Source of the DNA: Lacibacter luteus
Lineage (GTDB): Bacteria > Bacteroidota > Bacteroidia > Chitinophagales > Chitinophagaceae
Assembly: GCF_004118265.1 (NCBI RefSeq)
Contig: NZ_SDHW01000002.1
Span: 1-64,000 of the forward strand
Reading direction: 5' to 3'
DNA length: 64,000 nucleotides
Within the stretch, counting starts at the first letter, position 1, and each line of letters opens with the position of its first letter. The translations under genes and the position numbers were made by a program. Below the pieces are notes generated by a model, which was given only the letters and a program-made list of their open reading frames with translations, did no database searches and was not told the origin of the DNA. Positions 21,487 through 28,481 of the stretch are shown here, piece after piece.

Positions 21487-22932
21487 CTACTCTCCTTCCA
21501 CTTCTCTACTCTTCTGCCAAGGCTTTATACTCGGTCCATCCATCTTTACAATTTTTGGCGTAAAGCTTCCCACTACATCCACCAACGATTGCTGACTTTG
21601 CATTACTACATTGATGTCTTTGTAAGCAAAAGGCGCTTCATCCAATCCGCCGCCAAGCAATTTCACGCCATATTTTTTCAATTCATCTTTCAATGCATTG
21701 TGGGTGATGCTTTGCATTGCTTTGGAACGACTCATTAAACGCCCTGCACCATGCGATGCTGAGTTAACCGATGCAGCTTCACCTTTTCCTTTTACGATAT
21801 AACCGGTTGCAGTCATACTTCCCGGAATGATACCCAGTATATCTTTACCTGCAGGTGTTGCGCCTTTCCGATGAACGATCACATCCCTTCCCTCCCACTT
21901 TTCTTTCCATGCAAAGTTGTGATGGTTCTCCACCATCTTCATTGGTCTTCGTCCAAGTTGTTTGGCGATCTTGTTATGAATCACATGGTGACAGGCACTT
22001 GCATAATCACCTGCTAAGTTCATCGCCAACCAATACTCCATACCTTCTTCTTCATCTAAGTTTAACCAAGCAAGATTTTTTGCATCCTGTGGCAAACGTC
22101 TTTTGCTGATGGCGATTTTGGTATAGTAGTTGGCAATGTTTGCACCCAAGGCTCTTGAACCGGAGTGACTCAACAAACCAACATATTTGCCCGCCGCCAC
22201 ACCCAACACTTCATCTTTCTCTGCAACTTCCACCACACCAAACTCTACAAAGTGATTACCGCTTCCACTGCTTCCTAATTGTTTCCATGCACGACCGTGC
22301 AGATTTTTCAGCAACGGTAATTCAAAAAACAATTCGTTATCCATTACTTCATGGTCTTCGCTTTGTTTGAACTGTGCACCGCTTCCAAATAAAGTTGCTT
22401 CGCCCAGTTCTCTTGTGAAGAAACTTTCACGTTGCACTAATTCTTTTGGATCGATATCGTAAATGCTCAAACACATTCTGCAACCAATATCCACACCAAC
22501 TCCGTAAGGAATGACAGCGTTCTCAGTTGCCAACACGCCACCGATAGGCAAACCATAACCATGATGTGCATCGGGCATTAACGCTCCTGCAACTGCAACA
22601 GGTAATTTTGCTGCGGTATACATCTGGTGCATGGCACTTTGTTCAATATGCTCGCTACCGAATACATTGAATTGTATTCCGTTTTGATTCAACGACAACT
22701 CACCTTCACTTTCTTTTTCTTCCGGCATCAATTGCTTTGCGATCAATGCCAGCACGGCATCATCTAAATAATTTGCAGGCGATGCCAGCACTGCTTTCAA
22801 CAATTCCATTACTTCCTCCTTTGCAGTATGCTTGTACTGCTTTTGCATAATATTCATAGCGATGCTGATGACCGGTCCTTCCGGGTAGCCAATCGCTCTT
22901 AATTCTTTTCCTGATATTTTTAACTTGCTCAT
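21487..22932 (-). CDS. rtcB: RtcB RNA ligase with an N-terminal extension
   Basis: 481 residues. RtcB joins RNA ends with 2',3'-cyclic phosphate or 3'-phosphate to 5'-OH ends using GTP and Mn2+. Motifs seen: MPDAHHGYGLPIGGV (119-133), GVGVDIGCRM (metal ligands Asp148 and Cys151), SGSGNHF (222-228), LLSHSGSR (His256), ENHHNFAW (His337/338), GSM (371-373) and ASHGAGR with the guanylated His394. Residues 1-90 are extra relative to E. coli RtcB. They contain GKELRAIGYPEGP, which resembles the GxDLxxlGxxxGP motif in the helical part of CCA-adding enzymes. The zinc-ribbon gene ends 12 bp upstream. The position behind a tRNA array and tRNA-like RNA points to tRNA repair. Confidence 0.93.
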   Translation of the reverse strand: MSKLKISGKELRAIGYPEGPVISIAMNIMQKQYKHTAKEEVMELLKAVLASPANYLDDAVLALIAKQLMPEEKESEGELSLNQNGIQFNVFGSEHIEQSAMHQMYTAAKLPVAVAGALMPDAHHGYGLPIGGVLATENAVIPYGVGVDIGCRMCLSIYDIDPKELVQRESFFTRELGEATLFGSGAQFKQSEDHEVMDNELFFELPLLKNLHGRAWKQLGSSGSGNHFVEFGVVEVAEKDEVLGVAAGKYVGLLSHSGSRALGANIANYYTKIAISKRRLPQDAKNLAWLNLDEEEGMEYWLAMNLAGDYASACHHVIHNKIAKQLGRRPMKMVENHHNFAWKEKWEGRDVIVHRKGATPAGKDILGIIPGSMTATGYIVKGKGEAASVNSASHGAGRLMSRSKAMQSITHNALKDELKKYGVKLLGGGLDEAPFAYKDINVVMQSQQSLVDVVGSFTPKIVKMDGPSIKPWQKSREVEGE

Positions 22933-22944
22933 TGTTTTTAGTTT

Positions 22945-23301
22945 TTAGTGCCAGTCGTGAAAACAAAATCTGCATTGACGTGCTTCAGGTGTCCTTGCAA
23001 TTTTTCTACAACGGGGACACAAATTCAATTCCAATTCATTCTTATGTTCATTCCATATTCGTGTAACTACCTTCTCTTTAAATGCATCATAGCCCCCGCT
23101 TACTAAATCTTTGATTTCAGGATTGTCTAAAACATTTTCTTCTTTCATGAAGAATTTATACATTTTTACATTGGCTCCGTCCATTGATTTTGCCAATGCA
23201 TGTAAATGCAAATGGGCTTTCTTTTCATATTCACCAAAATACTTTCCACAATAATTAAAGATATACTCCTTTAATTCCGGATATAATTCAATACTATTCA
23301 T
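22945..23301 (-). CDS. Zinc-ribbon protein in the rtcB operon
   Basis: 118 residues of unknown function. An acidic, helical N-terminal part (about 1-85) precedes a C-terminal treble-clef-like or ribbon module with CPRC about residue 94 and CRFC near 111, ending in HDWH. It lies 12 bp before rtcB and after the slipin gene. A nucleic-acid or protein adaptor role for the ligase is plausible from position. I know no functional assignment. Confidence 0.7.
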   Translation of the reverse strand: MNSIELYPELKEYIFNYCGKYFGEYEKKAHLHLHALAKSMDGANVKMYKFFMKEENVLDNPEIKDLVSGGYDAFKEKVVTRIWNEHKNELELNLCPRCRKIARTPEARQCRFCFHDWH

Positions 23302-23423: not shown

Positions 23424-24521
23424 TTATTTCTGCGGCACAAAGATCTGTTTCAACTGTTCAATCAACACACCGTTGCCACTTACACTGATGTTGCTGATCT
23501 TGTCTGCGATCTTTTCTACATATTCCATTTCCTTCAGCTTCCACAACATTGCATTTTCTTCCATCAGCTTGGCAGTGTTCAGCAAGCTACGGGTGCTGGC
23601 AGTTTCTTCCCTACGCATAATGCTGTTGGCTTGCGCCTTTTTCTCAGCGATCAACACCTGGTTCATGATCTCTTTTACATCGCCCGGCAAAACAATATCA
23701 CGGATGCCAAAACCTAACACTTCAATACCCAACGCTTCCGCTTTTTCTTTTACCTGTGTCAGCACAAAAGGAGCAACTGCTTCTTTTTTCTCCAGCAATT
23801 CATCGAAACCATAACCGGCAATGTATTCACGCAGGGCCAGTTGAAAAGCCACATACAATTGTTGATCGTAGGCTTTGTTTTGCAACAATGCTTTTTCAAT
23901 ATCGTCCACTTTGTATTGTGCCCATGCATTCAAACGCAAAGCTGCTTTATCTTTGGTAAGAATTTCCTGACCGTTGATCTCCAGTTGTTGCTTACGCATA
24001 TCCACCTTACCAACATACACGGCAGTGCTGTTCTTCCACCAATAGTACACACCACTTTCCAGGGTTTGCATATACTTACCATCTACAAACAGCACAGCTT
24101 TTTCATAGCTTTCAACAGTGTAGCTACGCACATAGCTTGCCAGCAAACGATTTTGCAATACCACACGATCAATTTCTTTTTCAATGTTGATGCTGCCAAT
24201 ATCGGCACGAACAAAAGTATAGTTGATCACGCCTTTCCAGTAAGTATAACGACCGGCGGTTAATACCTGTTTCAGCAAACCGTTCTCGTATTGCAATACG
24301 ATCTCGTTGTCTTTTACTTCAACTACTTCCAGCGCTTCTGCCAATTCAGTATCCTTCAACAGAATGTTCAATTCAATTGGTGCAACAAATGGTTTGGTAA
24401 CATCGTACACATACACTTGTTTATTCCACAGCCAATAGGTTCCTTCTTTCAGCATTTTTTCATACACGCCATCTTTAAATACCAATGCCACTTGATAGGC
24501 ATTTACTTTTACACGTTTCAT
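23424..24521 (-). CDS. Slipin (SPFH/band-7) protein of the RNA-repair locus
   Basis: 365 residues. The N-terminal 125 residues contain two small repeated beta modules (VALVFKDGVYEKMLKEGTYW and a later copy KAVLFVDGKYMQTLESGVYYW). The SPFH domain follows (about 170-300, with LTKDKAALRLNAWAQYKV and LGIEVLGFGIRDIVLPGDV), then a short Glu/Ala-rich coiled coil (KKAQANSIMRREETA). No N-terminal membrane helix is visible. Slipins form oligomeric scaffolds, and genes of this type recur next to rtcB in bacterial RNA-repair operons. The gene follows the tRNA-like RNA region and precedes the zinc-ribbon and rtcB genes. Confidence 0.85.
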   Translation of the reverse strand: MKRVKVNAYQVALVFKDGVYEKMLKEGTYWLWNKQVYVYDVTKPFVAPIELNILLKDTELAEALEVVEVKDNEIVLQYENGLLKQVLTAGRYTYWKGVINYTFVRADIGSINIEKEIDRVVLQNRLLASYVRSYTVESYEKAVLFVDGKYMQTLESGVYYWWKNSTAVYVGKVDMRKQQLEINGQEILTKDKAALRLNAWAQYKVDDIEKALLQNKAYDQQLYVAFQLALREYIAGYGFDELLEKKEAVAPFVLTQVKEKAEALGIEVLGFGIRDIVLPGDVKEIMNQVLIAEKKAQANSIMRREETASTRSLLNTAKLMEENAMLWKLKEMEYVEKIADKISNISVSGNGVLIEQLKQIFVPQK

Positions 24522-24589
24522 TGTTTATTGTTTTGTTAGTGAGCTCTTACACCCACTACTTTTTTAAAAATATAAAGCCGGTTGTTTGA

Positions 24590-24769
24590 TCATCCTATTT
24601 TTACGGAAGCGACCTGTTCATGCTGTAGTTGCAACCGGTTCATCAAACGCCTGTTGATGATGTTTGTATCATCAATTCTGAATGACGAAGCAATTGCTGT
24701 GATAGCAGTTTCATGTTCGCTTTCGGGTAAATACCTGATTGCAGTTTGTATGAACTTATCGCTAACGAT
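24590..24769 (-). other. Open frame and overlapping mini-ORFs after the tRNA-like RNA
   Basis: Between the tRNA-like RNA and the slipin gene one frame stays open for 59 codons (24769 down to the TGA at 24590). Its composition is protein-like (for example RYLPESEHETAIT, SSFRIDDTNIINRRL), but it has no ATG, GTG or TTG until residue about 43 (ATG at 24643). In another frame a 43-codon ORF starts with ATG near 24774 and ends in TTTGATG, overlapping that ATG. A further ATGA overlap leads to an 8-codon ORF. This may be a small gene with an unusual start, a frameshifted remnant, or chance. Confidence 0.3.
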
Positions 24770-24784
24770 TTATTCATTCTTACT

Positions 24785-25058
24785 GCCGGTCATTCACCCG
24801 GCTTTATTTGTCTGGTCAGCATTTGAGAAGTGCTGTACTTCATCCGCTACATTATCAGTGTAGTGCTCTAACCAACTGAGCTATTACACAATCCTCTCGG
24901 AGTGTAAACCGGATTCGAACCGGTGCTTTTCTGTTGCTTTACCCCTGAGCTATTCCGATGCCATCGGAAATGGGAATTGAACCCATGACACACAGTGTAT
25001 GGAGGGAACTGCACATTGATGCAACAGCATACAGATAGCTACTGCGTCTGCACTGTTG
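24785..25058 (-). ncRNA. Structured RNA with two permuted tRNA-like (Y-RNA-like) modules
   Basis: Read on the minus strand. First comes a hairpin at 25022-25058 (CAACAG...CTGTTG with inner TGCAGA/TCTGTA). Module 1 (24936-24986) is a T-arm (ATGGG-TTCAATT-CCCAT), then TTCCGAT, loop GGC, ATCGGAA, TA and a D-arm. The acceptor strands pair perfectly, but the 3' half precedes the 5' half. Flanking CTGT and ACAG can close the place of the anticodon stem. Module 2 (24847-24924) is a T-arm (ACCGG-TTCGAAT-CCGGT), TTACAC, a TCC-GAGA-GGA cap, GTGTAA, TA, a D-arm and a true 5-bp arm with a 7-nt loop (CTACA-CTGATAA-TGTAG). A GCCGG/CCGGC hairpin follows (24785-24802). Bacterial Y RNAs (YrlA type) carry such tRNA-mimicking modules near rtc genes. 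No Ro/Rsr gene is in the window. Ends of the transcript are not known. Confidence 0.7.
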
Positions 25059-25132
25059 TGCTTCTTTGAAACACAAGCCTGGTTTGCTGTCAACATACAA
25101 ATACCCTTCTTGCCGTTAAGCAAGCTCTTATT

Positions 25133-25225
25133 GTCTGAACTGTGATTTTTGGGATGTATAGGATTTCTAAGATCATTCGCTTATTTCCCATTCATCTTAA
25201 CAATCATTCTCATCCCAGTTCAGAC
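25133..25225. repeat. 93-bp inverted-repeat element, copy 1 (after the AAA+ gene)
   Basis: Bounded by GTCTGAACT and AGTTCAGAC, with inner complementary words (GGATG/CATCC, AAGAT/ATCTT on the minus strand), so the transcript would fold into a long stem. It begins two bases after the stop codon of the AAA+ gene. A second copy of the same length lies at 26323-26415. The two share GATTGT(T/G)AAGATGA inside. Confidence 0.75.
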
Positions 25226-25228
25226 AGT

Positions 25229-26305
25229 TTAATTCATTAATTCAGCCTGTCGTCTGAAACCGATCACTTCCATTTTTTCAACAGGTTGCGCCTTTTCGTT
25301 CGGGTTAGCAATTTCTGCAATGGTCATTGGTTGATCGATCAACTTATCGAAACCAAAATGATTTGATAAACGATTGGCTTTCTCCACACCCAATTTTCCA
25401 AACTCATACTTTGCGATCAACCTTCCTTTACGCATCAATGCACTATCCACCATCGTAAGCGAACTGTTGAAGGTGCAGATCAACTGCACATTCAGAAAGT
25501 CGGCCAGTAACCCATCTGAAATATTTAACAGGTTTGATACAGATGAACTGCTGCTGTACTTTCGGTCCATGATAATATTCTCTGCATCTTCAATGATCAA
25601 TACCGTGTTGGGGTTATCGATCAGCAGTTCAATAAAATCAGGGTTCATCAGATTACCGGCAACCGAAGGCGACAGGAACAGCACACGTTTCTTGATTTTT
25701 CCAACCAGGTAACGCAGGTAAGTTGTTTTACCGGTGCCGGGCAAACCGTGCAGCAATACAATTCCTTTGTCATTCTTTTGGCTCAATCTTTTTCTGATCA
25801 CTTCATCTACTTCCTTAAAATCATCTTCATAAAAAAGATTCAAGTCAAGCTTGGTGCGTTTGATCTCCATCGCTTTTAAACCGAGATGATTCCTCTCCTG
25901 CACGATCAGGTTTATTTCCAATGGTTGCCGACGTTGTCTTTCCTTAAACTGATTTACCATTATTGTGAGTTCCTGCACAAACGCTTCATTTGTTCCGTTG
26001 TGTAATACTTCGCAATAGTCATCGTCAAATTCAAGTATGCAATTGTTGGTTAAGATCACCACCGTTTTGTCGAACTGAAATTTCTTTTTCTTTTGCTTGT
26101 ACCAGCGTGTCTGATGGATATCTTTTATCATTTCAGCATAACGCTCCTTAAATACTCCGAATGCTTTTTCGCCATCGATATAATTCATGAAATGAATACT
26201 CGGCAAGCTGTTGAAGCAATACAGGTATAAAATCTTTGTATCCAAAAAGTCGTTGCTAAACACATTGTTTGCACTGATCACTTTTTGATTAAATAAATTG
26301 TCCAT
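25229..26305 (-). CDS. BCS1-like AAA+ ATPase
   Basis: 358 residues. The N-terminal 175 residues are a non-AAA domain without recognised family. The AAA+ core has Walker A GLPGTGKTT (187-195), Walker B VLIIEDAE (235-242), a sensor-1 region ICTFNSS and an arginine finger region MRKGR (291-295). The core resembles BCS1/CbbX-type AAA+ proteins, which remodel protein or protein-RNA complexes. The gene is flanked by the two 93-bp inverted-repeat elements and lies between the YkuK-like gene and the tRNA-like RNA. A remodelling role in the RNA-repair locus is inferred from position only. Confidence 0.8.
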   Translation of the reverse strand: MDNLFNQKVISANNVFSNDFLDTKILYLYCFNSLPSIHFMNYIDGEKAFGVFKERYAEMIKDIHQTRWYKQKKKKFQFDKTVVILTNNCILEFDDDYCEVLHNGTNEAFVQELTIMVNQFKERQRRQPLEINLIVQERNHLGLKAMEIKRTKLDLNLFYEDDFKEVDEVIRKRLSQKNDKGIVLLHGLPGTGKTTYLRYLVGKIKKRVLFLSPSVAGNLMNPDFIELLIDNPNTVLIIEDAENIIMDRKYSSSSSVSNLLNISDGLLADFLNVQLICTFNSSLTMVDSALMRKGRLIAKYEFGKLGVEKANRLSNHFGFDKLIDQPMTIAEIANPNEKAQPVEKMEVIGFRRQAELMN

Positions 26306-26322: not shown

Positions 26323-26415
26323 GTCTGAACCTGGATTTAAATGATTAACCCGATTCAATAGATTATTTATTAGTCATCTTCACAATCTGAAAATCTCTTA
26401 AATCATGGTTCAGAC
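26323..26415. repeat. 93-bp inverted-repeat element, copy 2 (after the YkuK gene)
   Basis: Bounded by GTCTGAACC and GGTTCAGAC, with a second inner stem (GATTTAA/TTAAATC on the minus strand). It begins inside the TAG stop codon of the YkuK-like gene and ends 18 bp before the AAA+ start. See copy 1 at 25133-25225. Confidence 0.75.
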
Positions 26416-26897
26416 TATTGCACCACTTTATTTGCACAACTGGAGCTGGCGAAGGCCTGTGGTTTTGCTTTAAACGCAAAGCCCATTCCCATGATATAAC
26501 CCATTGCTTCCTTCAACGCATCATTGCTTTTAAAAGAAGGGTTGGTGTTAATATCGGCATGTACTTCCATATCCACATTATACAGTGTAAACAACCGGCA
26601 TAATTCATACGCCACATCAATACTCATCGCAACTTCCGTTAACATCCGTTGCTTGATGCTCATTTTTTGTTTTGTTGTTTCATTGTGGATGTACATGAAC
26701 CCGCCTTTTCCTTTCCGGATGAAAACGATCACGGTTGCAAATTCAGTTTCCCTGCTCTTCACCTGGCTATCGGTACCAATGCACACTTTCAATTCGTGTT
26801 CCATTTCTTTTTCACGCACCAACACAGCCCTTACTTCATCTTCAATCGGCCGCTGAATCCGTTGCCCGTTTAATTTTCTCCATTGCCGCTGTTCCAT
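26415..26897 (-). CDS. YkuK/DUF458 RNase H-like protein
   Basis: 160 residues. CIGTDSQVKSRETEFATVIV (39-58) carries the first catalytic-type Asp of an RNase H fold. EVAMSIDVAYE and VHADINTNPSFKSN (Asp115) supply further acidic residues, and YIMGMGFAFKAKPQAFASS is the C-terminal family signature of DUF458 (Bacillus YkuK). The fold suggests a nuclease or a nucleic-acid binder, though activity of the family is not settled. It is the first protein gene after the 15-tRNA array and shares its strand. The 5' leader contains the word AAAAATTAAAAATGTAAAAC, which recurs about 110 bp upstream, after the array. Confidence 0.82.
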   Translation of the reverse strand: MEQRQWRKLNGQRIQRPIEDEVRAVLVREKEMEHELKVCIGTDSQVKSRETEFATVIVFIRKGKGGFMYIHNETTKQKMSIKQRMLTEVAMSIDVAYELCRLFTLYNVDMEVHADINTNPSFKSNDALKEAMGYIMGMGFAFKAKPQAFASSSCANKVVQ

Positions 26898-27048
26898 TGT
26901 TTTACATTTTTAATTTTTGTTTTGCGACCAACAGAAGTATTTCATAGCATCTTCGTTGTGTCACTCACTTGTTTTGTTTGTTCATTGTTCATCTTTTAAA
27001 AGAATGTTTTACATTTTTAATTTTTCATTCTCCAATTCTCATTTCAAG
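26898..27048 (-). other. Spacer between the tRNA array and the YkuK-like gene
   Basis: A/T-rich spacer. The word AAAAATTAAAAATGTAAAAC occurs twice, once directly before the YkuK-like start codon and once next to tRNA-Phe. Two mini-ORFs (16 and 11 codons) overlap through ATGCTATGA. A relative of the dispersed repeat (CAAG...ACACAACGAAGATG) is at 26948-26975. Confidence 0.45.
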
Positions 27049-27121
27049 TGGTGCCCCGTGGAATTGAACCACGATGTCCGGGATTTCACTCCGGTGCATA
27101 TATCCATTCTGCCAAAGCACC
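27049..27121 (-). tRNA. tRNA-Phe (GAA)
   Basis: Acceptor GGTGCTT/GGGCACC (two G-U pairs), T-arm CGTGG-TTCAATT-CCACG, anticodon loop GTGAAAT on stem CCGGA/CCCGG with a 31-39 mismatch. CCA is not encoded. Last gene of the array. The sequence is unlike ordinary bacterial tRNA-Phe and looks phage-type. Confidence 0.88.
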
Positions 27122-27191
27122 AGTTTGTTTGCTACAGTTACTGACTGATATCTTATTTCCTCATCATCGAACTCAACTGTTTCAAACAATG

Positions 27192-27278
27192 CGGAGAGTA
27201 AAGGAGTCGAACCTTTGTATCGAATAAACGATAGCCCAAGCTTAGCAGGCTGGCACATTACCACTCTGTCAACTCTCC
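27192..27278 (-). tRNA. tRNA-Ser (GCT)
   Basis: Acceptor GGAGAGT/ACTCTCC, anticodon loop CTGCTAA, a long class II variable arm (CTATCG...CGATA) and T-arm AAAGG-TTCGACT-CCTTT. No encoded CCA. Separated from tRNA-Phe by 70 bp. Confidence 0.9.
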
Positions 27279-27374
27279 GTTTTACTTTTTGTTCCATGCT
27301 ACAAAAACTCCGATCATCTTCGTTGCGTCGCACTCTTGTACTGCATATCGCAAATCATGTTTTCTAATACATAG

Positions 27375-27458
27375 CGGAGAGAAAGAGATTCGAACTCTTG
27401 AGGTTTTTACACCCAGTCTGTTTTCAAGACAGCATCCATGACCATCCGGACTCTCTCC
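27375..27458 (-). tRNA. tRNA-Ser (TGA)
   Basis: Acceptor GGAGAGA/TCTCTCC, anticodon loop CTTGAAA, short class II variable arm, T-arm AAGAG-TTCGAAT-CTCTT. The D-arm is weak (starts GTCCGG instead of the usual TGGCCGAG). The upstream 95-bp gap carries a relative of the dispersed repeat (27315-27341). Confidence 0.87.
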
Positions 27459-27463
27459 ATAAG

Positions 27464-27548
27464 TGTGAGTGGTAAGACTCGAACTTACTCAGCTATAAAA
27501 GCAGCGGTTTTACAGACCGCTACGACTCTCCAACTTCGTCGCACTCAC
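27464..27548 (-). tRNA. tRNA-Tyr (GTA)
   Basis: Acceptor GTGAGTG/CACTCAC, anticodon stem GCGGT/ACCGC with loop CTGTAAA, class II variable arm (GCTTTTATAGC), T-arm GTAAG-TTCGAGT-CTTAC. It lies five bases from tRNA-Ser(TGA). Confidence 0.9.
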
Positions 27549-27553
27549 AATTG

Positions 27554-27625
27554 AGGATGAAGAAAGATTCGAACTTTCAACCAACGGTCTAACAAACCGC
27601 CGCTCTGCCGTTGAGCTATTCATCC
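27554..27625 (-). tRNA. tRNA-Asn (GTT)
   Basis: Acceptor GGATGAA/TTCATCC, anticodon stem GCGGT/ACCGT with loop TTGTTAG, T-arm GAAAG-TTCGAAT-CTTTC. Five bases from tRNA-Tyr and four from tRNA-Lys. Confidence 0.9.
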
Positions 27626-27629
27626 ATTG

Positions 27630-27703
27630 TAGTCCCGGTGAGATTCGAACTCACAACCCTCCGGTTAAAAGCCGGATACATCTGCCAATTGAGCTACGAG
27701 ACT
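27630..27703 (-). tRNA. tRNA-Lys (TTT)
   Basis: Acceptor AGTCTCG/CGGGACT, anticodon stem TCCGG/CCGGA with loop CTTTTAA, T-arm GTGAG-TTCGAAT-CTCAC. Lys(UUU) is the target of the anticodon nuclease PrrC. Confidence 0.9.
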
Positions 27704-27709
27704 TTTTTG

Positions 27710-27781
27710 TTGCGACTGAAAGATTCGAACTTTCAACTATCACCTTGTAACGATGATCTTCTCCCATTGAATTAAGTCGCA
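27710..27781 (-). tRNA. tRNA-Val (TAC)
   Basis: Acceptor TGCGACT/AGTCGCA, so it starts with a U1-A72 pair. Anticodon stem TCATC/GGTGA with loop GTTACAA, T-arm GAAAG-TTCGAAT-CTTTC, the same T-arm as tRNA-Asn. Confidence 0.88.
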
Positions 27782-27788
27782 TTGTTTG

Positions 27789-27863
27789 TGATGACTGAAA
27801 GACTTGAACTTTCAACCTTTACCGTATCAGGGTAACGCTCTCAACCAATTGAGCTAAGTCATC
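27789..27863 (-). tRNA. tRNA-Ile (GAT)
   Basis: Acceptor GATGACT/AGTCATC, anticodon stem TTACC/GGTAA with loop CTGATAC, T-arm GAAAG-TTCAAGT-CTTTC. Its anticodon matches that of permuted module 2, but the arms differ in sequence. Confidence 0.9.
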
Positions 27864-27871
27864 TTATTTTG

Positions 27872-27944
27872 TTGACCCAATCAGATTTGAACTGATAACC
27901 TTGAACGTATAAGGTTCCTGCTCTTACCATTGAGCTATGGGTCA
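27872..27944 (-). tRNA. tRNA-Ile (TAT)
   Basis: Acceptor TGACCCA/TGGGTCA, anticodon loop CTTATAC, giving UAU, T-arm ATCAG-TTCAAAT-CTGAT. Most bacteria read AUA with a CAU tRNA modified to lysidine by TilS, so a UAU isoacceptor is rare. The 27-43 pair is mismatched. Confidence 0.88.
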
Positions 27945-27950
27945 ATCATT

Positions 27951-28024
27951 GTTGCGGTTGCAGGATTCGAACCTGCAGCTAAGGCTTATGAGACCTTCGA
28001 GTTAACCGTTACTCTAAACCACAA
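27951..28024 (-). tRNA. tRNA-Met-type (CAT)
   Basis: Acceptor TTGTGGT/ACCGCAA with one G-U pair, anticodon stem AAGGT/GCCTT with loop CTCATAA, T-arm TGCAGG...CCTGCA. CAU could be elongator Met or a lysidine-type Ile. It lacks the three G-C pairs of an initiator. Since a UAU tRNA is next to it, Met is more likely. Confidence 0.82.
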
Positions 28025-28031
28025 TCTATTG

Positions 28032-28104
28032 TTGACTTAACAAGAGTCGAACTTGTATCTCTGCGTTCGTAGCGCAGCATTCTCATCCATTGAACTATAA
28101 GTCA
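28032..28104 (-). tRNA. tRNA-Arg (ACG)
   Basis: Acceptor TGACTTA/TAAGTCA, anticodon stem CTGCG/CGCAG with loop CTACGAA, T-arm ACAAG-TTCGACT-CTTGT. A34 is presumably converted to inosine by TadA. Arg(ACG) is a colicin D target. Confidence 0.9.
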
Positions 28105-28109
28105 AATTT

Positions 28110-28203
28110 GTACGGCTTCCGGATTCGAACCGAATACAATCATCTGCTACTTGCCTCTCAGAAAGAGAGGGAGACGAACATGTTACCATTACACTCAGCC
28201 GTA
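28110..28203 (-). tRNA. tRNA with unclear anticodon (TTC, Glu, most likely)
   Basis: 94 nt. Acceptor TACGGCT/AGCCGTA and T-arm TTCGG-TTCGAAT-CCGGA are good, and the D-arm GTGT-AATGGTA-ACAT is acceptable. The best anticodon arm is CCTCT-CTTTCTG-AGAGG, giving UUC. That leaves about eight extra bases between D and anticodon stems and a 19-base variable region, which is odd for tRNA-Glu. A GAG (Leu) reading with a weaker stem is the alternative, since Leu tRNAs have long variable arms. Confidence 0.7.
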
Positions 28204-28252
28204 TTGATTTTAATTCTTTCTATTTTTTCATTTTAAATTTTTCATTTCCATT

Positions 28253-28325
28253 GGTTGACTCCGGGATTCGAACCCTGTTCTTCCGTTGCACAGACGGATG
28301 CTTTACCACATAAGCTAAAGCCAAC
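28253..28325 (-). tRNA. tRNA-His (GTG)
   Basis: Acceptor GTTGGCT/AGTCAAC, D-stem GCTT/AAGC, anticodon stem TCCGT/ACGGA with loop CTGTGCA, T-arm CAGGG-TTCGAAT-CCCGG with one mismatch. The start is set to the G pairing with the last C. That G may instead be the encoded G-1 of tRNA-His. Confidence 0.87.
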
Positions 28326-28330
28326 ATTTG

Positions 28331-28403
28331 CTATTGAGGATAGATTCGAACTATCATCATCAGTGTCAAAGACTGATATGCTAAACCATTACACCACTCA
28401 ATA
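28331..28403 (-). tRNA. tRNA-Gln (TTG)
   Basis: Acceptor TATTGAG/CTCAATA, anticodon stem TCAGT/ACTGA with loop CTTTGAC, T-arm GATAG-TTCGAAT-CTATC. Five bases from tRNA-His. Confidence 0.9.
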
Positions 28404-28408
28404 TTTTG

Positions 28409-28481
28409 TATAGCAGGCAGGACTCGAACCTGCAGCCTCTCCGTTCCAGGCGGAGTATCCAACCAATTGGAATGCTGCTAT
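28409..28481 (-). tRNA. tRNA-Pro (TGG), first gene of the array
   Basis: Acceptor ATAGCAG/CTGCTAT, anticodon stem CTCCG/CGGAG with loop CCTGGAA, T-arm GCAGG-TTCGAGT-CCTGC. Position 33 is C, not the near-universal U. It follows the hairpin at 28493-28544 by about a dozen bases. Confidence 0.88.

What the first reader, a model, noticed from the sequence alone, without database searches (positions are those of the whole stretch)
24785..25058. Two tandem permuted tRNA-like modules beside slipin and rtcB
Seen directly: twice, a T-arm is followed at once by a 3' acceptor strand, a short cap, a matching 5' acceptor strand, TA and a D-arm. In module 1 the acceptor strands pair in all seven positions with a three-base cap. 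In module 2 six pair, with a GNRA (GAGA) capped extension. In an ordinary tRNA gene these halves come in the opposite order. Two independent matches make chance unlikely. Established: bacterial Y RNAs (YrlA type) contain a tRNA-mimicking module with a closed acceptor end and are found near rsr and rtc genes. Here there are two modules in tandem, module 2 keeps a true 5-bp/7-nt arm with GAU at the anticodon place, and no Ro/Rsr gene is in the window. Inference: a Y-RNA-like scaffold or decoy for tRNA-handling proteins, or permuted tRNAs matured by RtcB.
Basis: partly seen in the sequence, partly recalled or inferred. Interest (0 to 1): 0.88.

Follow-up and report, generated by a model that had tools for sequence, protein, structure and literature searches.

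The report
Large Ro-free Y-RNA-like tRNA mimic
Beside an RNA-repair gene cluster lies an unrecognised, strongly conserved RNA of about 570 letters that carries two rearranged transfer-RNA look-alikes; it sits just before one kind of slipin gene in many related bacteria and, in most of them, without the Ro protein that such RNAs are known to work with.

Summary
On the minus strand (25129 to about 24563, upstream of slipin and rtcB) lies one large structured RNA whose core is two tandem permuted tRNA-like modules (T-arm, 3' acceptor strand, cap, 5' acceptor strand, TA, D-arm). Relatives show strong covariation: 42 pairs, 93.8% of cells paired, score 0.680 against 0.224 shuffled and at most 0.152 slid; a test that did not use acceptor pairing for selection gave 6.12 of 7 pairs against 3.73. 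Module 1 is closed by a stem at the anticodon-stem place, as in YrlA; module 2 has an anticodon arm whose triplet is not conserved. A pseudoknot and covarying 5' and 3' domains flank them. Of 66 genomes with a model hit of 75 bits or more, 60 have the RNA 254-528 nt upstream of the same slipin; the six others are tRNA-array loci. Ro/TROVE is absent here and in 55 of those 60. It fails YrlA membership (Rfam cutoff, length, Ro). Permuted tRNAs matured by RtcB are unlikely. Best reading: a Ro-independent, Y-RNA-like generic tRNA mimic tied to slipin in RNA-repair/tRNA-array loci. Trans-acting scaffold or decoy, or cis-acting leader, is undecided: no expression data.

The parts
24563..25129 (-). 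whole large structured RNA (ends approximate)
   Evidence: conserved block between the AAA ATPase stop and the slipin start in relatives; covarying 5' and 3' domains
25109..25124 (-). 5' hairpin CUUGC-UUAACG-GCAAG
   Evidence: helix 1, 89.0% of cells paired; position
25000..25107 (-). 5' domain: stem (AGGG with CCCU) enclosing two hairpins
   Evidence: helices 2-5 (84.0-97.9% paired)
24989..24997 (-). P1 stem 5' strand and linker, closing module 1 at the anticodon-stem place
   Evidence: pairs with 24930-24935; helix 1, 89.2% paired, all 5 pairs change on both sides
24970..24986 (-). module 1 T-arm
24953..24969 (-). module 1 closed acceptor stem, 7 bp with 3-nt cap
   Evidence: helices 3 and 4: 98.4% and 79.9%
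24936..24950 (-). module 1 D-arm
   Evidence: helix 5, 99.4%
24930..24935 (-). P1 stem 3' strand
   Evidence: helix 1
24908..24924 (-). module 2 T-arm
24884..24907 (-). module 2 closed acceptor stem, 6 bp with GAGA-capped extension
   Evidence: helices 7 and 8: 95.8% and 73.2%
24865..24881 (-). module 2 D-arm
   Evidence: helix 9, 93.0%
24847..24863 (-). module 2 anticodon arm, 5 bp and 7-nt loop CUGAUAA
   Evidence: (helix 10, 96.3%)
24817..24841 (-). H-type pseudoknot (GAAG with CUUC; loop CAGC with GCUG)
   Evidence: 33 of 41 distinct loci with a full Watson-Crick 4-mer; mean 3.66 against 1.84 +/- 0.20 shuffled
24572..24807 (-). 3' domain closed by AUAAAGCCGG / CCGGCUUUAU
   Evidence: four helices above the maximum of 300 shuffles
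23424..24521 (-). slipin (Band 7/SPFH) gene, constant downstream neighbour
   Evidence: Pfam Band_7 3.2e-31
21487..22932 (-). rtcB RNA ligase
   Evidence: Pfam RtcB 1.7e-80
22945..23301 (-). 118-aa protein with CxxC pairs, no family above cutoff
25229..26305 (-). AAA ATPase
   Evidence: Pfam AAA 1.8e-10
26415..26897 (-). Ribonuclease H-like protein (PF04308)
   Evidence: 7.3e-39
27048..28481 (-). tRNA array upstream in the same orientation

Best explanation
It is a Ro-independent, Y-RNA-like structured RNA: a long RNA that displays two closed-end tRNA look-alikes. Each has the tRNA elbow (T-loop and D-loop), one adds a generic anticodon arm, and neither has a free acceptor end, so neither should be chargeable. 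Shown here: the structure by covariation, the conservation, the fixed place before one slipin subfamily, and the tie to RtcB and tRNA genes. Inferred: that it is transcribed as its own RNA, acts together with the slipin (SPFH proteins form cages), and uses its tRNA-like faces to dock or titrate tRNA-handling enzymes (modification enzymes, repair enzymes or anticodon nucleases) during tRNA damage or translational stress.
For: Covariation of the module helices, pseudoknot (63), 5' and 3' domains (109, 111). The descriptor finds at least one closed-acceptor module upstream in 88 of 96 slipin loci (a few of its hits are spurious or belong to other sequence). Anticodon-loop hallmarks are kept while the triplet drifts: C32 34, U33 34, purine 37 45 and A38 43 of 45; 21 triplets, so shape seems selected and decoding not. 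Rfam YrlA sub-threshold at a permuted module in 14 of 14 loci scanned, and none in the tRNA array of L016 (10 tRNA matches there, E up to 0.5). RNA 254-528 nt before slipin on the same strand in 60 of 66 genomes with a hit of 75 bits or more. No hit at 11 loci of other SPFH genes. RtcB in 58 of 61 RNA-positive against 23 of 60 other genomes of the family (Fisher p 5e-12; 57 of 60 without G324). In G258 a YrlA-like module and a TROVE gene lie about 1.7 and 2.6 kb upstream of this RNA and its slipin. In Anabaena the repressor TrcR controls a tRNA array, rtcB, a slipin and an AAA ATPase, at separate loci (PMC10272220, passages and one section).
Against: No transcript, binding or phenotype evidence was available. 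The closing stem ends a median 38 nt (24-225) before slipin with only a weak U-run (4.45 T in 12 nt on average), so the RNA may be the slipin mRNA leader. rtcB is not always a neighbour: 35 of 61 full-flank loci, 3 of 12 loci in other families. The RtcB association is not corrected for genome size or phylogeny, and most of the 60 comparison genomes were not checked for slipin. Read in ordinary order, D-arm 1 to T-arm 2 also scores as a tRNA in some relatives (L035 47.2 bits, L042 38.7, L007 38.4, L004 37.9), and 5 of 23 tandem loci have 6 or 7 such pairs, so an alternative fold is possible there. That slipin binds RNA is unknown.
Confidence: 0.5

Rival explanations
1. Cis-acting leader: the RNA is the 5' leader of the slipin(-rtcB) mRNA. 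A tRNA-binding factor, or competition with damaged tRNAs, changes the leader and so slipin-rtcB expression, in the manner of the thrS operator that mimics tRNA.
For: Co-directional and 254-528 nt before slipin in 60 of 61 genomes compared; closing stem a median 38 nt from the start codon; no strong U-run.
Against: Size and elaboration exceed usual leaders; related modules lie beside TROVE genes, the setting of trans-acting Y RNAs, in 4 of 5 loci scanned (L206, L207, L208, L210). Neither point is decisive.
Confidence: 0.27
2. Decoy only: the modules are competitive baits for an anticodon nuclease, with no role for slipin binding.
For: PMC7790460 suggests that the YrlA tRNA-like domain could inhibit an anticodon nuclease (passage); the anticodon arm keeps its shape while the triplet varies.
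Against: Module 1 has no anticodon loop; a decoy does not explain the 5' and 3' domains or the fixed slipin neighbour.
Confidence: 0.12
3. Permuted tRNA genes whose transcripts are circularised, for example by RtcB, and trimmed to working tRNAs.
For: Module 2 has the order of a permuted tRNA with a full anticodon arm; RtcB nearby.
Against: Triplet not conserved; module 1 lacks an anticodon loop; caps mostly of 3-12 nt; the genome has 53 tRNA matches, one of them the partial hit in this element. A bulge-helix-bulge motif was not searched for.
Confidence: 0.03
4. Decayed tandem tRNAs of the neighbouring array.
For: Neighbouring ordinary tRNAs, above all of the same isotype, can imitate the pattern: three R1 hits of 89-105 bits (G671, G681, G677) were such arrays; they scored 63.5-65.5.
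Against: Ordinary-order pairing of 5' acceptor 1 with 3' acceptor 2 averages 4.04 of 7 against 6.26 and 6.70 permuted (23 tandem loci); conserved T-loops and covariation.
Confidence: 0.01

Closest known systems
YrlA-type bacterial Y RNA (Rfam RF02553)
   Same: T-arm, closed acceptor, TA, D-arm in that order; outer stem at the anticodon-stem place; found with RNA-repair genes
   Different: about 570 nt, two modules, the second with an anticodon arm, pseudoknot and extra domains; no Ro in this genome; below the Rfam cutoff
Circularly permuted tRNA genes (archaea, algae)
   Same: 3' half before 5' half
   Different: no conserved anticodon; module 1 without anticodon loop; embedded in a larger RNA
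GOLLD and ROOL large ornate RNAs
   Same: large structured RNA beside tRNA islands (PMC12286853, passages)
   Different: no Rfam match (that both are Rfam families is recalled); here beside slipin and rtcB with internal tRNA-like modules
tmRNA
   Same: tRNA-like part plus pseudoknot
   Different: closed acceptor; no tmRNA match in the window element
Eukaryotic vault (MVP with vault RNA)
   Same: SPFH-type cage protein with RNA; the slipin model matches MVP at E 3e-10 to 6e-9, behind stomatin and HflK
   Different: the slipin N-terminal repeats alone give no match at E 0.001 and no MVP among the 50 listed; no evidence that slipin holds this RNA

Membership tests
YrlA Y RNA | tRNA-like module with T-arm, closed acceptor and D-arm | tested here: met
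YrlA Y RNA | module closed by a stem formed by its flanks | tested here: met
   P1, helix 1: 89.2% paired, 5 of 5 pairs change on both sides
YrlA Y RNA | Rfam RF02553 gathering score (69 bits) | tested here: not met
   28.7 bits in the window; 26.8-42.5 in 14 of 14 loci
YrlA Y RNA | length 90-150 nt (as given in PMC8394870, passage) | tested here: not met
   conserved unit about 570 nt; the transcript itself was not measured
YrlA Y RNA | Ro/Rsr (TROVE) partner encoded | tested here: not met
   0 of 1 own genome; 6 of 61 genomes, one of them G324, which lacks this RNA
YrlA Y RNA | binds Ro and PNPase; dihydrouridine and pseudouridine in the loops | not testable with these tools
   needs biochemistry
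Permuted tRNA gene | conserved anticodon | tested here: not met
   21 triplets in 45 arms
Permuted tRNA gene | bulge-helix-bulge splice motif | not tested
   not searched for
Permuted tRNA gene | circular pre-tRNA and mature CCA end | not testable with these tools
   no reads
tmRNA | Rfam RF00023 match | tested here: not met
   none in 24520-25230 at E up to 5; in L042 an 18-nt T-arm match of 15.1 bits, cutoff 47
GOLLD/ROOL | Rfam match | tested here: not met
   none listed
Vault MVP (protein partner) | MVP-type N-terminal repeats | tested here: inconclusive
   whole slipin model hits MVP; residues 1-129 alone do not

The most novel reading that the evidence does not exclude
A bacterial vault-like ribonucleoprotein: a cage-forming SPFH protein with extra N-terminal beta repeats and a Y-RNA-like tRNA mimic as its RNA, found beyond Bacteroidota, which holds damaged tRNAs or their enzymes for RtcB repair. 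It would be a Ro-free branch of the Y RNA world.
Probability: 0.15. Interest if true: 0.95.

Novelty: new variant of a known kind. Interest (0 to 1): 0.84.

Why it matters
It would add a large structured RNA family that Rfam 15 does not list, show that Y-RNA-type tRNA mimicry exists without Ro, and give a concrete RNA and protein pair (this RNA and slipin) with which to test what RNA-repair/tRNA-array loci do. The covariance model of the core already makes the family searchable, provided tRNA arrays are screened out.

Tried and rejected
Raw tallies of model R1 (291 of 294 family genomes; 389 of 395 phylum genomes) are meaningless, because ordinary tandem tRNAs match it, up to 105 bits (72.4). 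Single-strand folding of 291 nt was unremarkable (z -1.21). Viral contigs: no relative of the slipin alignment; phage records: one partial hit. PADLOC gave only weak hits. R1 reached only 13-24.7 bits in front of the Citrobacter, E. coli, Burkholderia and Subdoligranulum slipins (four loci), so homology of those RNAs is not shown. The vault reading of slipin was weakened.

Selection to know. The 96 slipin loci are 16 (own genome and 15 relatives) and 80, and overlap: L031, L033, L036 and L096 repeat L004, L006, L007 and L010. A2 held 43 of the 55 tandem loci. Left out: those four repeats; L013, L049, L060, L106, L107 (no clear anticodon arm); and L005, L016, L086. The 55 had been chosen with acceptor pairing required, so favours the acceptor helices and the anticodon arm; one search is the test without that selection (66 of 96 loci passed its motifs; 90 places, 75 distinct pairs). 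None of the shuffles corrects for kinship. A5 held 48 of 51 aligned 5' regions (L005, L032, L107 out). The helices were predicted on the same sequences that were then counted. The 60 comparison genomes were picked by me (no R1 hit of 75 bits). The 61 genomes leave out five hits of 75 bits or more that I already knew to be tRNA arrays without slipin nearby (G671, G681, G677, G335, G526): hence 60 of 66. For those five only 9-14.5 kb was searched for slipin. A6 was made and not used.

Full report
Check of the observation. The letters reported lie on the minus strand, in the gap between an AAA ATPase gene (25229-26305) and slipin (23424-24521). Both modules have the stated order and pairing. Rfam reports a partial tRNA hit at 24826-24884 (33.9 bits, model positions 7-64), which is the D-arm, anticodon arm and following bases read in ordinary order, and a sub-threshold YrlA hit at 24930-24994 (28.7 bits, cutoff 69).

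Relatives. Slipin loci: 16 in the genome search (own genome and 15 relatives) and 80 in named genome contigs, partly the same loci. Upstream of these 96 a descriptor found at least one permuted module in 88 and exactly two in 60 (a few hits are spurious). The covariance model R1, built from 43 of them, scored 75 bits or more in 71 of 96; 20 of the other 25 have a hit of 42-72 bits at the same place, a range that ordinary tRNA arrays also reach. Choosing places by T-arm and D-arm motifs alone, 75 distinct acceptor pairs gave 6.12 of 7 paired against 3.73 +/- 0.13 when strands were exchanged between loci. On alignment A2, 42 pairs kept 93.8% of cells paired (70.0% shuffled), 441 cells with changes on both sides (123 shuffled), covariation 0.680 (0.224 shuffled, 0.077-0.152 slid).

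A result to weigh against this: read in ordinary order, D-arm 1 to T-arm 2 pairs 4.04 of 7 on average in 23 tandem loci, but 6 or 7 in five of them (L004, L031, L035, L037, L053), and L035 scores 47.2 bits as a short tRNA. An alternative fold is therefore possible in some relatives; in the window it is not (ATCGGAA does not pair with TTACACT).

Larger RNA. A pseudoknot follows the anticodon arm: of 55 tandem loci 47 gave a hairpin, 41 distinct; 33 of 41 have a full Watson-Crick 4-mer, 2 have none; mean 3.66 against 1.84 +/- 0.20. The 5' domain has 24 pairs, 91.4% paired against 75.9%, covariation 0.482 against 0.215. Four helices of the 3' domain exceed the maximum of 300 shuffles. The unit spans about 25129-24563.

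Module anatomy. Module 1 is closed by P1, in which all five pairs change on both sides, so its anticodon loop is open, as in YrlA. Module 2 has a 5+7+5 anticodon arm in 45 of 51 distinct tandem loci; C32, U33, purine 37 and A38 are kept (34, 34, 45 and 43 of 45), while 34-36 takes 21 triplets. This looks like selection for the tRNA shape, not for a codon.

Distribution. In 294 sampled family genomes 49 had an R1 hit of 75 bits or more, the own genome among them. Of 395 sampled phylum genomes, 17 outside the family reached 75 bits: 12 lie before slipin; 5 (G671, G681, G677, G335, G526) are tRNA arrays without slipin in the 9-14.5 kb fetched. In the 61 genomes taken on (49 + 12), 60 have slipin on the same contig and strand 254-528 nt downstream, median 312. 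The exception, G324, has no such slipin in its genome; its hit lies in a TROVE/tRNA-array/AAA/RtcB locus. Together 60 of 66. Eleven loci of other SPFH genes had no hit at E 0.01.

Neighbourhood. Of 61 contig loci with both flanks of 5.5 kb, RNase H-like is present in 48, rtcB in 35, AAA in 27, at least one upstream co-directional tRNA in 42, and the 118-aa protein in none. RtcB is present in 58 of 61 RNA-positive genomes (57 of 60 without G324) and 23 of 60 comparison genomes. TROVE is absent from the own genome and present in 6 of 61 (5 of 60 without G324). Beside TROVE genes, YrlA-like matches below cutoff were found in 4 of the 5 loci scanned with Rfam (L206, L207, L208, L210; not L209), two each in L207 and L208.

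Beyond the phylum. Nine plasmid-collection records hold a slipin matching 98-100% of the Citrobacter one (seven cover 95-99% and two 77% of the window slipin): Citrobacter, E. coli twice, Burkholderia four times, Photobacterium, Subdoligranulum. In Citrobacter it is divergent from rtcR. A strict 5-bp T-arm lies within 900 nt upstream of the match in 6 of 9; the three enteric ones have a 4-of-5-pair T-arm followed by a closed stem. The strict form occurs in 3 of 18000 shuffled and 0 of 201 other windows; the looser form had no such control. Topology varies (by eye, the Burkholderia ones look like ordinary-order tRNA mimics), so this is a lead, not proof of one family.

Slipin. AlphaFold2 gives what I read as three SPFH1-like beta repeats, an SPFH core and a long helix (pLDDT 81.8, pTM 0.59). 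Foldseek ranks stomatin and HflK first and lists MVP at E 3e-10 to 6e-9. Residues 1-129 alone (pLDDT 87.6) have no match at E 0.001; the likeliest of the weak ones are SPFH proteins, and MVP is not among the 50 listed.

Literature. Ten searches listed no paper that by its listing reports an RNA upstream of slipin; this covers only the held open-licence library, and the listed papers were not read whole. Passages seen: PMC7790460 (rsr-yrlBA-rtcBA; YrlA as possible inhibitor of an anticodon nuclease), PMC8394870 (YrlA), PMC12286853, PMC12624060, PMC2258279, PMC13174449. PMC10272220: passages and the discussion section. Chen 2014, the Sim and Wolin review, and Burroughs and Aravind 2016 were not held; what I say of them is recalled or as cited by others.

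Verdict. A real large RNA, not listed in Rfam 15, with tandem permuted tRNA-like modules, Y-RNA-like in architecture but Ro-independent here, tied to slipin. Whether it acts in trans or in cis is open.

Noticed in passing
L191, L211, L212: In E. coli a slipin plus nucleotidyltransferase pair sits as an accessory insertion between yjbD and lysC (a place covering 80% or more of the query in 1621 of 5426 genomes), with a T-arm and closed stem upstream.
   Followed up: partly
L190:5960-9913: In Citrobacter the slipin-nucleotidyltransferase pair is divergent from rtcR, suggesting a second RtcR-controlled operon.
   Followed up: partly
L206, L207, L208, L210: TROVE (Ro) genes in these Bacteroidota genomes have YrlA-like modules beside them, two each in L207 and L208, all below the Rfam cutoff.
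   Followed up: partly
L205, L209: A different locus type: TROVE, tRNA array, AAA ATPase and rtcB without slipin in the stretch fetched.
   Followed up: partly
L175:7199-7340, L179:7150-7224: Further tRNA-like model matches shortly after the tandem pair in two relatives.
   Followed up: no
window 28110-28200 (-): tRNA-like sequence with a long insert before the T-arm, listed by neither ARAGORN nor Rfam at its cutoff.
   Followed up: no
window 27871-27944 (-): tRNA-Ile with a UAU anticodon in the array; bacteria usually use a modified CAU (recalled).
   Followed up: no
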